From Thelephora terrestris (Eukaryota; Basidiomycota; Agaricomycetes; Thelephorales; Thelephoraceae), in the NCBI GenBank assembly GCA_015956445.1, contig WIUZ02000005.1:1612001-1676000 (forward strand): DNA of 64,000 nt, given 5' to 3'. The notes beneath the pieces were generated by a model. That model worked only from the letters and a program-made list of their open reading frames with translations. It was not told the origin of the DNA and did not search any database. Position 1 is the first letter of the stretch, and every line of letters begins with the position of its first letter. The translations under genes and the position numbers were made by a program. This document shows, piece by piece, positions 1-6,908 of the stretch.

Positions 1-235
1 CTTCTCGGATAACTAGTTGAGGAATCAACAGAAAGTCAGAACTTGGATCTTGCGCTATGATGTCGACGACAGAGGACAGCGACACGTACGCGAGATACGA
101 TAGAATCGCCAGCACTGGGACCGTACTCGTCGTCGGAAGACACCACGCTCGATGACCTGTCTAATTGGTGGGGTTTGCTCCTTGGGAAGTCGCTTCCTGA
201 ATTCCATCGTTGCATCCAATTTTCCCAAAGGAGCA
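1..235 (-). pseudogene. scrambled partial duplicate of importin-alpha 5' exons
   Basis: Two blocks match the intact importin-alpha gene further right. Bases about 150-233 match about 6314-6397, roughly 80% by eye over 84 bases. Read on the minus strand they give LDAT.EFRK and PPI.QVIE.GV. Bases about 1-148 match about 6430-6570: the exon ending DDEYGP..GDS, its intron, and the next exon starting LSEK. The blocks lie in the reverse of their order in the intact gene, as expected if one truncated copy were joined to the start of a second copy. The second copy would continue left of the window. The junction falls at a GTGGTG-like stretch present in both parent segments. The intron acceptor before LSEK is kept, so whether the leftward copy works cannot be judged here. 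Confidence 0.8.
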
Positions 236-2977
236 TTTCGCACCTCGCTATATCGTCTGCTGCCCCGAGCGTTTGGAATATTTCGATCGCGCGCAGTACC
301 TCGGACGTTGCATCTTCGAGCCTGTGCTGTCGAAACCAAATCCTTGCCTGTATTTCCATCACACGACCCAAGAGGTATTTGTCTTCAGTCGCGTGTGACT
401 TGGCTTGTTCGATGTGGACCTGTGCATTGTTGAACTCGTCTTGATCGAGAAACAAAGAGGCCAGGGAGTGATGAATCCAAAACAGTTCATTGTGGAAGTT
501 GAATGTGGATGCGATTTTGAGAGCTATCTCGAATTGACGGATTGCATTCCCTTTCTCGCCTTTGGAATAAAATATATCCCCGAGAGTCCGATGAGCTTTG
601 CAGACCAGAAATTCTTCGCCTTTTTCCGGAAGGGATTCGATCGCGGTTGTCACAGCTTCTTCTGCCGCATCATATTCATCTCCATCCAATAAAAGGTGCG
701 CAAGATTAATTAAACACTCTGCTTGTTGCCCCGTGTTGCCAAGCCGTTTGAAAATTTCCGACGCTTCCTTCGATTGCTGTATCCCTTCCTCGAGGAGGTT
801 TAGCCGCCGATTTGCATCAGATAGTTGTTTTAGTGTTCTAGCAAGATTTGCGTCGTCCCCTTCTTTTCTCCAGAGCTCCAAAACATGGATGAGAAGCCGT
901 TTGTTCTCCACGCGATTTCCAATTGACTGGAATGACCGTGAAAGGTGATACAAGCATTCGGGCTTGAGGCGATGGTCATCCGGAAGCCCCTCGATTGCTG
1001 GCGCCAGGGAGACCGGCCGACTTTTATACCAATAAAGGTGCTTTAGGAAGTTGGCACAGGCAGTCCAGACGTCGTCCGAGCCAGTGGATATGAAGACATT
1101 GAGCAGGTGCTCGACGTTTACATCCTCGGACCTGATCCATTCGCCTTTCCTGAACCCGGGATCGTCAGGATAGATGTAAGTTGATAGTCGGCTAAAGTAA
1201 TGGTCCTTGGTTGCGCAGAGAAGGGGAGATGAGCTTGGCTCTCGGGGACCAAGGTAGTCTCTAATCGGCGCCAGCATGGTGATGACCTCGTTTCTTCGAG
1301 ACGTCAGGGAAAGAAGGCAGAATTTGTCGAAGATGGTATTTCTGTCGGGGATGGTGGGAAACAACCAGTCCAGGTTGTTTTCGTCGATCCCTTGTGGGTA
1401 GAAAGCGACAACTCCCAGCAGCTCGCGCGCGTCAGCTCCCAGTTTGCGGAACGTCGGGGAAGCTAAAGAGAGTTCGATGGCCGCCGCCAAGCTCTCGTTG
1501 TAATCTGTCCGAAGTACCCGTGCCCGCTGCGTGTCCCACTCTTTGGCCAGGCGCTCGTAACTCCACACATTGTGAGATGCAGCAGTGGCGAGTAGGGTGA
1601 TCGAGAGCGCGTGGAAGTCCAATCGCCCAACGAGGTCGCTGACGATGTCGGACCGCTCGCCGGTGTCATGGATGCCGTAGAAGATCTCACATGCTGACTT
1701 GGTTGATAATGTATGGATAATCGGCCGCTTGCAGCATGGAGGGACAGTGGAGACCCGGGAGGTGATCCCGAGACAAATGTTGCTAAACCGACTCAGCTCC
1801 TCGACTACCGCGTACATCTCCCGAGCCTCTGGTCCCTGAGGGTCGAGAATCAATTCGGCATTGTCGAGGAACAAGATCATATCCCTCGAAGCCAGGAATG
1901 GTCGCAGAGGTGCCAAATCCTCGGGGTTATCCACTCCTGCACCGATCACCTTGGAGAGTCGAGCGAGTAGATGGATCCGCGAAGGCGGGAACTGATCACA
2001 ACGTATGAATCGTCGGTTTTCACCAAAGCGGCCCTTGATGCGATCGTGGTGAAGGACAGCGAGGGCAATCGATGTTTTCCCAATCCCCCCTGCACCGATG
2101 AGAGCGAAGGATTCGAGATTATCAGCAAGGCCAGCAATGTTCTCGATCAGTTTATCGCGCCCGAAACAGGCCCATGGCGGCGGGGGAGGCGACTCTCCAA
2201 CAGGGATGCTATCAAACCGTCAGACTGTGGACCCTAACTGTATCGAATGTAACTAACCTGGCTTGAACCTATGGAGCGGTCAGTATTTTCTTGTTTATAG
2301 AAAATCACACTTACCGATCGTTGAGCATTCGCGCGTCCCTGATGGATATCCACGACCCGCATGTGAGTACTAATTCCCAGCTTGGTCTGAAATCAGGCTG
2401 TCAGCAAAGCCAAACCAGGACTTGTCAGACGTACTTACATTGAAGACGTTTAGGAGTCTGTCGAGGCCCTGCCTCCAAGAAGCGATCGCCTCCTTGTCAT
2501 CCTTTGCGTGAAAAAATTTAGAAGCGGCGTTTCGTTTGCCTATCTTGATGATCTTCTCCTGGATATCGGCCAAGGTCCTGTGATGGTGACGTTGGTACGT
2601 GCACCGTCCAGCATTGGTACTCCCACGTACGTAGTCAGTTTCCCAATCGCCCCAAGCACGGGCTGGTCGAGTTCATCCAATTGCCTCCCTTTCAATACCT
2701 GGCCAAGGGCATCGCAAACCTCGGCGCAGGAGAGCCCGAGCTCGATACAGTCCTTTTTGTTTGCCATAGAGTCCTGGGAAAACGTGAGGCAATCACCACA
2801 TGATTCAAGGAGAGAACGTACCCTGATCATTGTCAGGATGATAGCGGCCGAAGCGAAGGCAGCCTTGGCGGGAGTGATGCTCACGATCTCCTTCGCAAGA
2901 TTTATGCCCTCGATAGTCATACTCAGCGCTGAGAGGGCACCATCGCGCCCTTTCGATTGTTTCGGATCGGTGGCCAT
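36..2977 (-). CDS. NLR-like STAND protein A (helical N-domain, NB-ARC/NACHT, TPR)
   Basis: This is a predicted fungal STAND ATPase of the type linked to non-self recognition and cell death. The start ATG at 2977 opens the same first exon as its two paralogues (GRDGALSAL, then ATPAKA-like and MIR before the first intron). Exons run about 2977-2822, from 2773, from about 2577, a linker exon, an 11-base microexon (2258-2268), and a long exon from 2208. The ATPase part shows a P-loop (GAGGIGKTS), a Walker B-like LDNAE, a CITSR-like LGITSR, and an FHALSITLLA motif corresponding to GxP. TPR-like helical pairs fill the second half. The reading frame is open throughout. The paralogues end in a short Ser/Asp-rich tail. 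Here the last 55 or so residues instead read through the importin-alpha fragment, ending DDEYGP..GDS plus read-through into a former intron. Function is inferred from family architecture. No ligand is known. Confidence 0.85.
2258..2268 (-). other. 11-base microexon of NLR-like gene A
   Basis: GTTCAAGCCAG is flanked by an acceptor ending CCATAG and a donor GTTAGT. Splicing it to the exon beginning CATCCC gives VQAS followed by PVGESPPPPP and CFGRDK, which aligns with the paralogues. An intron of 49 bases (2209-2257) separates it from the ATPase exon. Without it the frame is lost. Confidence 0.75.
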
Positions 2978-4809: not shown

Positions 4810-6908
4810 CTACGAGCCGAACCTGAAACCGCCGGGGGGAGGGGCACCAGCGTTCGGATCGAACTAGATGAATAAAAGTTGTCAGAAAATTCGAAGCAAC
4901 CAACAACGGGTATTTGCATGGACTCACAGCGAAGGCCCCAGAAGCGTCGACGTTCGCCGGACCAGCTCCTGCATCAACTTCCTCGTCGTCTGGGAAGTAC
5001 TTGTCCATGATGTTATACGCCTTCTTGTAAATATCCCCGTTATCGTGAGATTGGAGGTTATGAATTGTGATCATTCCTCCAGCCTCTTCCACGTAGATCG
5101 CATACTGATTCGCGGCGCCTGCTCCCGCAGCGGCCTTGTCCATCTCACCAACCTTGAGGATGTTATCCAACCCGTCCAGAGCGACTTGGATGATCTTGTT
5201 GTCCATCATAGTCAACAAGTCACACAAGGGTTTGATGCACCCCTGGTTAACAAGGTAACGAATCTGTGTCGGCTCTTGCAGGCCGCCCGAAGTGGCGTTC
5301 GAGATCGCCCAGCACGCTTCCTTCCTGGTCTTGAAGTCAGCATTGGAGAGGATGTTGATCAGAGGTGGGATAATATTGGCGTCAATGACGGCCTGGATCT
5401 GGGGCGGCGATCCGGCGGTGATGTTCGAAATCGTCCAGCACGCCTCCTTCCTGATCCCCTCTTTTGGCGAAGAGAGGAGAGAAAGAAGGGCTGGCAGGGC
5501 TCCCGATGCGATCACCACCTGGGTCTGTAGGTCGTCACCCGTAACGATGTTTCCGACCGAGCGCAGAGCCGGGGTTTGGACAGACGTGGACGGGTGCATG
5601 AGGAGATCCACCAGCCTTCGGCAAACACCCGACTCAATGACGGCCTGAATCTTATCGTTGGATCCGTCAGAAAGGTAAGAGATCGCCCAGCAAGCATCAA
5701 TCAGGATCTCATCGTCCATGGAATAAATCAGCTTCGTCAAGACCGTCAATGCAGGGGAAATCTGGAGGTGACGAAGGACAAGTCAAAATTACGTCACCCG
5801 GAGGAGGAAACAAGCGCGGGTGAAGATGAGACACGTACCAATTCCCAATCTGGTTGAGGGCTCTTACCACGGCAGAAGTTGGAAAGTGTCCAAGTGGCGT
5901 TCCTCTGCATGCTGAGCTTGTGATTCTCACTCAAAAGCGTCAAGAGCGGCCTCAAGGCACCTTGCTGGAGGACGTAATCTCGGCAAACAGGACTGTCACC
6001 AGCGATGTTTCCTAAAGCCCAAACGGCCTGTTCGCGGACATCGAGGACAGGAGAAGAGAGCAGCCTGATGAACTCTGGAACTGCGTTGGCGTTGATAACC
6101 ACTTGGGTGTGGTGAGCAGTTCCGGAGGCAATGTTCGTTAGGGCCCACGCGGCTTCAAACTAAAGATAACGAGAAGGAACAAACAGGTGCGTGATCAGAG
6201 GTAATGAATAGCCGAGACGGGCCAGCGTTTGATGGTGGGGACCCAGAATGGCAGAAGGCTCACCTGCAGCATGGCATGATCCCCCTGCAAAAATTGGACA
6301 AAGCGTGGCACGACACCACACTCGATGACCTGCTCGATCGGCGGGTTTTTCTCCTTGGAGAGTAACTTCCTGAATTTCGTCGTAGCATCCAATTGGCGGG
6401 ACGGGTCATCAGAGAAAACACCCTGGACCATCTCCTCGGACAACTGATCAAAGAAAAAACAGCAAGTCAGAACTAGGATCTCGCTGTATGATGTTCAAGA
6501 CAGAATGAGGATGCGTACGTGAGATACGACAGAATCGCCACCACCAGGACCGTATTCGTCATCGGAGTCACCACCACCAGAGGGGAGCAAGTTCCGCCTC
6601 TTTGAGATGTTTTCCTCTCGCTTTTGCTTCCTGATCTCTACTTGCTGATCTTCACGTCGACGCCTCAGCTCGTCGGCCTTCAATCCCTTGTTTTTATAAG
6701 CTATTGTATCATGATAGCGCGTCAGCAAAGTATCAGAGTAAAACCGTCGGACGAACCTTCTTTGCGATTTACCTGCATCGTATTGGCGGACGAGGGATGA
6801 TGTGAGGGAAGGGAGGATTTTAATCAAACAAAACACGATCACAGTCCTAGGGTGGCACGAGCTCCGTGACCCGTGACGGATAACGCTGTCACTCTACTTG
6901 TCTTTCAT
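4810..6908 (-). CDS. SRP1: importin subunit alpha (karyopherin alpha)
   Basis: This adaptor binds classical nuclear localisation signals and hands cargo to importin beta. The N-terminal importin-beta-binding domain is clear: [16 protein letters not shown], then [10 protein letters not shown] and KRRN, followed by the acidic DDEYGP segment. Armadillo repeats follow with the usual [31 protein letters not shown] and [12 protein letters not shown] signatures, whose Trp and Asn residues line the cargo groove. The last exon is short and ends FRFGS before TAG. At least five short introns occur. The first ATG is not settled: the exon before YKNKG has no in-frame ATG. One possible start at 6908, joined by a 50-base intron, is only a guess. 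Its 5' exons are the parent of the fragment at the left window edge. Confidence 0.93.

What the first reader, a model, noticed from the sequence alone, without database searches (positions are those of the whole stretch)
1..240. Scrambled importin-alpha duplicate captured as the C-terminus of an NLR-like gene
Two blocks of importin-alpha 5' sequence lie in inverted order beside the 3' end of NLR-like gene A, whose frame reads through them for its last 55 or so residues. One block is read out of its native frame and the other in it. Paralogues B and C keep a different Ser/Asp-rich tail. This looks like a recombination between importin-alpha copies at a GTGGTG-type microhomology, giving the NLR a new C-terminus and implying another importin-alpha copy left of the window.
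Basis: partly seen in the sequence, partly recalled or inferred. Interest (0 to 1): 0.72.

Follow-up and report, generated by a model that had tools for sequence, protein, structure and literature searches.

The report
NLR receptor fused to importin-alpha
At this spot in a fungal genome, an immune-receptor-like gene runs in frame, through a shared intron, into a nearly complete copy of the neighbouring nuclear-import gene, so the fungus seems to have built a receptor that carries a copy of its own import machinery as a possible bait.

Summary
Window 131-221 and 1-146 match importin-alpha exon 3 and exon 2/intron/exon 3 in inverted order (BLASTN E 4e-17 and 9e-25). It is the edge of something larger. 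Left of the window the second block continues for 1.7 kb as an importin-alpha copy (83% identical to the native gene at window 4.7-6.6 kb). NLR gene A enters its exon 2 in the native frame. If the importin introns are spliced at their native sites, GT..AG in each case, gene A encodes 1325 residues: NLR, 44-residue linker, then the importin ARM-repeat region without the importin-beta-binding (IBB) domain. The readthrough tail of about 55 residues is the intron-retained reading. A second copy, A', lies inverted 38 kb away with the same scramble and frame. The 458 shared codons hold no stop and no indel in either copy. Part of the ARM region looks exchanged with the native gene. Best reading: a fungal NLR with an importin-alpha integrated domain, perhaps a decoy. 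No transcript data exist here. Amino-acid evolution is fast and the NLS groove is not specially conserved, so the decoy function is inference.

The parts
1..12 (-). Start of importin-derived exon 7 of gene A (LSEK...), which continues left of the window to C45:1611833; exons 8 and 9 lie further left, to C45:1610506
   Evidence: Gene model; alignment with native exon 3
13..89 (-). Intron (77 nt, GTACGT...AACTAG) at the same site as the native importin-alpha intron (75 nt, window 6444-6518); the in-frame stop of the unspliced ORF (window 36) lies inside it
90..137 (-). End of importin exon 2 (SDDEYGPSAGDSIVSR), read in its native frame
131..221 (-). Relic of importin exon 3, read out of its native frame as a linker; closer to native exon 3 (16/83 differences) than to the fused exon 3 (31/83)
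   Evidence: BLASTN
90..2208 (-). Large exon 6 of NLR gene A: P-loop NTPase (GAGGIGKTS), TPR region, NLR/importin junction near 222-232, linker
   Evidence: tails of 30 paralogue loci
2258..2268 (-). 11-nt microexon (exon 5) of gene A; the same solution is possible in A' and paralogue D
2315..2386 (-). Exon 4 of gene A; the edge of the inverted duplication shared with A' lies here (window 2318)
2439..2577 (-). Exon 3 of gene A
2631..2773 (-). Exon 2 of gene A (helical N-terminal domain; sub-threshold Pfam MLKL_N match)
2822..2977 (-). Exon 1 of gene A, ATG at 2977
4810..6701 (-). Native importin-alpha (part modelled here; its first exons were not modelled), parent of the fused domain; exons 6519-6566 (end of exon 2), 6264-6443, 5839-6159, 4928-5761, 4810-4863; the only IBB match of the genome search lies at 6555-6701

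Best explanation
Gene A and its inverted copy A' are fusion genes. A fungal NLR (helical N-domain, P-loop NTPase, TPR) recombined near its last codons with a duplicate of the neighbouring importin-alpha gene. It lost about ten NLR residues and replaced the importin promoter and IBB domain with the NLR. Transcripts would be spliced at the native importin introns, giving an NLR that ends in an importin-alpha ARM solenoid which can no longer bind importin-beta or autoinhibit. I propose the ARM domain is an integrated sensor or decoy: it displays a copy of the nuclear-import receptor to invaders (viral proteins, effectors, nonself factors) that bind importin-alpha, and binding or loss of cargo triggers the NLR. 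Shown by sequence: the two loci, frame, splice sites, loss of IBB, tracts shared with the parent. Inferred: transcription, translation, ligand, signalling.
For: In-frame 9-exon model of 1325 aa with GT..AG at all 8 introns. The importin introns sit at the same sites in A, A' and the native gene. Pfam gives 8 Arm stretches plus Arm_3 in the fusion and no IBB, while the native protein has IBB at 4.9e-23; the genome search for IBB gave one match, in the native gene. Best PDB match is importin subunit alpha 4rxh, E 4e-183. No stop and no indel in the 458 shared codons of either copy. For the 130 A-A' differences a neutral simulation stayed stop-free in 1.8% of runs, and the nonsynonymous fraction is 0.623 against 0.719 expected, P 0.005; dN/dS 0.47. 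Noncoding A-A' alignments carry 4 gap events in 817 positions, the 1374 coding positions none (P 0.019). A 222-nt identical run between A and native exceeds all 20000 shuffles. Among 27 of 30 NLR loci scanned, A and A' included, only these two have Arm repeats downstream.
Against: No RNA or protein data. A-A' dN (0.081) is about the divergence of their introns (18/240) and 3' flank (21/290), so the ARM domain evolves almost as fast as noncoding DNA. Exons 2-4 alone do not reach significance (P 0.063), and conversion from the native gene could mimic constraint. NLS-groove positions are not better conserved than others (16/96 against 78/576, Fisher P 0.43); for A-A' they are if anything less conserved (10/42 against 32/252, P 0.09). 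Hallmark residues of ARM5-6 have changed: W to R and R to C in A, N to H in A'. The C-terminal tail is degraded: a 1-nt deletion near the end of A's frame, just after the 458 codons counted, and a 10-nt gap against native in the last exon of both copies. With that deletion counted, the indel contrast weakens to about P 0.07 (by hand).
Confidence: 0.6

Rival explanations
1. Passive readthrough fusion: the NLR gene is functional, the importin part is a recent relic, and the working protein is the intron-retained NLR with a 55-residue tail or is indifferent to its ARM tail.
For: The unspliced ORF stops at the same place in A and A' (...HSARSKF, HTARSKF). Amino-acid divergence of the ARM part is close to the noncoding rate. 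The C-terminal tail is degraded.
Against: No stop or indel in 458 codons of either copy; splice sites, and a CTGAC motif in the first importin intron that fits a branch site (recalled consensus), kept in both; nonsynonymous fraction below neutral, P 0.005.
Confidence: 0.25
2. Separate truncated importin-alpha gene: the copy is transcribed from a cryptic promoter inside the NLR 3' end and acts as an IBB-less regulator of nuclear import, not as part of the NLR.
For: Frame and ARM repeats intact. An ATG codon occurs early in exon 7 (MVQG in A, MIQG in A').
Against: No IBB match lies at either copy; the NLR frame enters the importin exon in its native frame in both copies, which a separate gene would not need. 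No promoter scan was made.
Confidence: 0.1
3. The ARM domain is kept as a generic protein-binding extension of the TPR solenoid, for instance to choose partners or to place the NLR near nuclear pores, without acting as a decoy of importin-alpha.
For: Fast divergence and lack of groove-specific conservation fit a redirected binding surface.
Against: W and N of ARM2, 3, 4, 7 and 8 are unchanged in both copies (20 of 20 residues); tracts identical with the native gene.
Confidence: 0.3

Closest known systems
Sordariales NLRs with a C-terminal CHK-2-like PKinase domain, proposed as integrated decoys (PMC12258605; passages and sections 14 and 20 read)
   Same: Fungal NLR with a complete tripartite core and a C-terminal domain copied from a single-copy host gene
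   Different: There T-NACHT NLRs with a kinase; here a TPR-bearing NLR with an importin-alpha ARM domain, the parent gene under 5 kb away, and traces of gene conversion with it
Plant NLR-IDs with integrated decoys (PMC4759884; passages read)
   Same: Host protein domain fused to an NLR. Table 2 of that paper lists Arm as a domain shared by NLR-IDs and by targets of the effector group HARXL106, AT1G09270 and AT4G02150 (both importin-alpha genes by recall)
   Different: Plant NB-LRR proteins; the word importin does not occur in the held main text; no importin-alpha NLR fusion turned up in my searches
Importin-alpha (SRP1/karyopherin alpha; PDB 4rxh, 1wa5 among the matches)
   Same: ARM solenoid; W and N of ARM2-4 and ARM7-8 kept
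   Different: No IBB domain; C-terminal tail degraded; attached to an NLR
Basidiomycete NLRs with MLKL-like N-domains (PMC9815663; passages read)
   Same: N-terminal helical domain with a weak MLKL_N match (22.3 bits, cut-off 27)
   Different: Match is below the curated threshold; the word importin does not occur in the held main text

Membership tests
STAND/NLR protein | P-loop NTPase followed by a repeat domain | tested here: met
   GAGGIGKTS at the P-loop (motif by recall); TPR_12 5.5e-12 above cut-off; AAA_16 and nSTAND1 matches below their cut-offs; 49 near-full-length rows, A itself included, in the genome search
STAND/NLR protein | N-terminal effector (cell-death) domain | tested here: inconclusive
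   MLKL_N E 1e-4, 22.3 bits against a cut-off of 27; the genome-wide family search found nothing, but its controls did not ring either
NLR with integrated domain (NLR-ID) | Non-canonical domain in frame in one gene with a complete NLR | tested here: met
   By gene model only; for A' the first exons were not modelled; no transcript
NLR with integrated domain (NLR-ID) | Domain derived from a host gene | tested here: met
   Parent importin-alpha at window 4.7-6.7 kb, 83% nucleotide identity
NLR with integrated domain (NLR-ID) | Domain binds an invader's factor and triggers the NLR | not testable with these tools
   Needs binding and cell-death assays
Importin-alpha | ARM repeats with W/N arrays | tested here: met
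   Pfam Arm, 8 stretches; W/N kept in ARM2-4 and ARM7-8 in both copies, changed in ARM5-6
Importin-alpha | N-terminal IBB domain | tested here: not met
   No match in the fusion model of A at E 0.01; one IBB match in the genome search, at the native gene
Pseudogene | Stops or frameshifts in the coding frame | tested here: not met
   None in 458 codons of either copy; a 1-nt deletion in the last codons of A

The most novel reading that the evidence does not exclude
An NLR that senses attack on nuclear import: it carries an IBB-less importin-alpha ARM domain as bait, kept similar to the real import receptor by gene conversion from the parent gene under 5 kb away while diverging elsewhere under conflict. 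It would be the first importin-alpha integrated decoy known to me, caught with its parent beside it.
Probability: 0.35. Interest if true: 0.85.

Novelty: new variant of a known kind. Interest (0 to 1): 0.63.

Why it matters
Integrated decoys are well shown in plants (recalled; reviewed in PMC4759884, passages) but, as far as I saw, only proposed in fungi (PMC12258605). Here the donor gene, the fusion, a second copy, an unfused paralogue and the junction scars all lie within about 47 kb, so the birth of an NLR-ID can be read directly. It makes a testable prediction: whatever binds importin-alpha in this fungus, from a virus, bacterium or nonself partner, should bind the fusion. If the ARM domain is used as a bait, nuclear import is a target under attack in fungi.

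Tried and rejected
Assembly artefact at the window end: rejected, since the window lies inside a 2.5 Mb contig and the arrangement recurs in an inverted, diverged copy.

Pseudogene: disfavoured for the ARM part by intact frames and splice sites. The rapid amino-acid change is reported as evidence against strong constraint. A first stop-free simulation on all N-A and N-A' substitutions (0.45% and 0.35% of 2000 runs) overstates the case, because part of those changes fell on the native branch; I rely on the A-A' version.

Groove conservation as proof of NLS binding: tested and not found. The groove positions were chosen by me from recall of the ARM repeat.

Domain capture as a habit of this NLR family: 30 same-strand ORFs within 1.5 kb downstream, from 27 of 30 loci, were scanned (the longest ORF of each locus, except L024, where the second longest; two ORFs for L026, L043 and L046). 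Apart from A and A' two ORFs matched Pfam, a TPR ORF (L026) and an RNA_pol_L ORF (L032). L035, L041 and L042 were not scanned. Short exons or domains further away would be missed.

MLKL_N by genome-wide family search: nothing, and no control rang, so uninformative.

Indel contrast: my first count of 5 noncoding gap events included alignment ends; the recount is 4.

Other fungal genomes: none were offered by the tools used here, so age and spread of the fusion are unknown. The species was not identified. No structure prediction was run: the spliced protein is not a letter-for-letter translation of the DNA.

Full report
Observation. BLASTN of window 1-320 against the rest of the window finds only the importin-alpha gene at a significant level, in two blocks: 1-146 against about 6432-6574 (77%, E 9e-25) and 131-221 against 6304-6394 (79%, E 4e-17). 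On the coding (-) strand the order is exon 3 fragment, then end of exon 2, intron, exon 3, which is inverted relative to the native gene. The NLR frame runs through both and stops at window 36.

What lies left of the window. The window is C45:1612001-1676000 of a 40.6 Mb genome in 60 contigs. Going left, block 1-146 continues without a break as an importin-alpha copy to C45:1610311, 83% identical to the native gene. The whole unit occurs again, inverted, at C45:1571548-1577262: 87% identity over 5.8 kb to C45:1608659-1614318, including the exon 3 relic. I call the window copy A, the inverted copy A', and the native importin N. A third close NLR, D (C45:1579317-1581306, 89% to A), has no importin beside it. 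A 165-residue importin-alpha query matches the genome only at these three importin places (11 matches at E up to 0.001, 13 of 13 candidates scored), and the IBB family search gives one match, at N.

Gene model. In N the exons following [16 protein letters not shown] are LSEEMV..AMLQ, FEAAW..DWEL, ISPAL..FA and FDPNAG..FGS. A and A' have the same exons with GT..AG at the same sites, except that A's frame ends at a stop before the last of them. Their exons align with N without indels over 458 codons, while introns differ in length (75/77/77, 104/104/99, 77/65/64 nt for N/A/A'). For A a 9-exon model runs from ATG at window 2977 to a stop at C45:1610506 and gives 1325 residues, with all eight introns GT..AG and one 11-nt microexon. 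In A' and D the same microexon solution restores the frame; by my own simple splice score it ranks first of 119 candidate solutions in A', first of 64 in A and second of 59 in D. The more upstream exons of A' were not modelled in full; they are a more diverged N-terminal part (66% over window 2468-2742). The unspliced reading gives the 55-residue tail of the finding, because its stop lies in the first importin intron.

Domains. Pfam on the A model: TPR, eight Arm stretches (best at residues 1165-1204) and Arm_3 (1265-1314). No IBB, which N has at 4.9e-23. The N-terminal MLKL_N match is below its cut-off. The nearest solved structures are importin alpha proteins (best 4rxh, E 4e-183). Of 30 NLR loci whose 3' ends I printed, A and A' included, only these two have the NWMQ linker; the others end from a few to roughly 90 residues after the conserved LL..IE region. 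So the fusion replaced only about the last ten NLR residues of the shorter form. The linker is 28 residues from the relic block, out of frame, plus 16 from exon 2 in frame.

How it formed (inference). GTGGTG stands at the inner junction and in native exons 2 and 3. The relic is nearer to N (16 of 83 differences in A, 13 in A') than to the fused exon 3 (30 to 32 of 83). This fits two importin-derived pieces joined by separate events. The scramble is in both A and A', so it predates the inverted duplication.

Selection. N-A: dS 0.301, dN 0.085; N-A': 0.322, 0.083; A-A': 0.172, 0.081, dN/dS 0.47. In the NLR exon, A-A' gives dN/dS 0.29. Neutral simulation for A-A': nonsynonymous fraction 0.623 observed, 0.719 expected, P 0.005; chance of staying stop-free 0.018. 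Exons 2-4 alone, outside the long identical tract, give P 0.063; exon 5 alone P 0.028. Noncoding A-A' alignments carry 4 internal gap events (2 in 240 intron positions; 2 in 577 flank positions), the 1374 coding positions none: P 0.019. The 1-nt deletion of A just beyond these codons is left out of that count; with it the contrast is about P 0.07 by hand. Against strong constraint: A-A' introns differ at 18/240 and the 3' flank at 21/290 or 39/577, about the same as dN. Codon changes private to A or A' are richer in nonsynonymous ones (52 nonsynonymous, 36 synonymous) than those shared against N (24 and 45); 25 codons differing in all three were set aside, and conversion from N can create private differences (sums). 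So the ARM part looks like a coding sequence whose frame is kept while its residues change fast. Relaxed constraint and diversifying selection both fit.

Gene conversion. Divergence from N is uneven: dS N-A is 0.556 in exons 2-4 but 0.060 in codons 275-400. A 222-nt identical run (N-A) and a 106-nt run (N-A') each exceed all 20000 shuffles of the mismatch positions. The shuffles ignore uneven constraint, but the fall in dS speaks for exchange with the parent gene; the direction is not shown.

NLS groove. W and N of ARM2, 3, 4, 7 and 8 are unchanged in both copies; ARM5-6 are altered (A: W to R, R to C; A': N to H). Over the groove-register positions that I chose, conservation against N is not better than elsewhere (16/96 against 78/576, P 0.43), and between A and A' these positions differ if anything more often (10/42 against 32/252, P 0.09). 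That these arrays bind NLSs, and that IBB loss removes autoinhibition and importin-beta binding, is recalled knowledge.

Mechanism. I favour an integrated sensor or decoy. An IBB-less ARM domain on an NLR would offer an importin-alpha surface to invader proteins without serving import, and binding would release the NLR. Precedents: proposed CHK-2-derived kinase decoys in Sordariales NLRs (PMC12258605, sections 14 and 20 read), and Arm listed in plant NLR-IDs and among effector targets (PMC4759884 Table 2, passages). My paper searches showed no importin-alpha NLR fusion. That covers only the held open-access library, mostly at listing level.

Verdict. Expression and function are untested.

Noticed in passing
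whole genome G000: Very large NLR family: 85 match rows, 49 of them near full length, clustered on contigs such as C8, C1, C2, C12 and C45; only 67 of 249 candidates were scored, so this is a lower bound.
   Followed up: partly
window 1070-1319 against A': In a comparison where A and A' differ by about 9% over much of the block, one 250-base bin shows no difference and the next 2%, suggesting gene conversion between the two NLR copies as well.
   Followed up: no
window 2318 / C45:1571548: The inverted duplication ends inside exon 4 of the NLR, so A and A' have different N-terminal parts (66% nucleotide identity at window 2468-2742), a possible effector-domain swap.
   Followed up: no
window 2258-2268: An 11-nt microexon is a possible shared feature of A, A' and D.
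   Followed up: partly
C45:1706822-1711819 (L023): Close NLR paralogue (84% protein identity) with one in-frame TGA reported in the match, perhaps a pseudogene.
   Followed up: no
C45:1608659-1609390, left of the window: NLR-like fragments (about 70% identity) lie just 3' of the fused gene on the same strand; the mirror region beside A' has matches too.
   Followed up: no
L032:3860-4585 (contig C12): An ORF with an RNA polymerase Rpb3/Rpb11 dimerisation match (8.7e-6) lies within 1.5 kb downstream of another NLR on the same strand; probably an ordinary neighbour.
   Followed up: no
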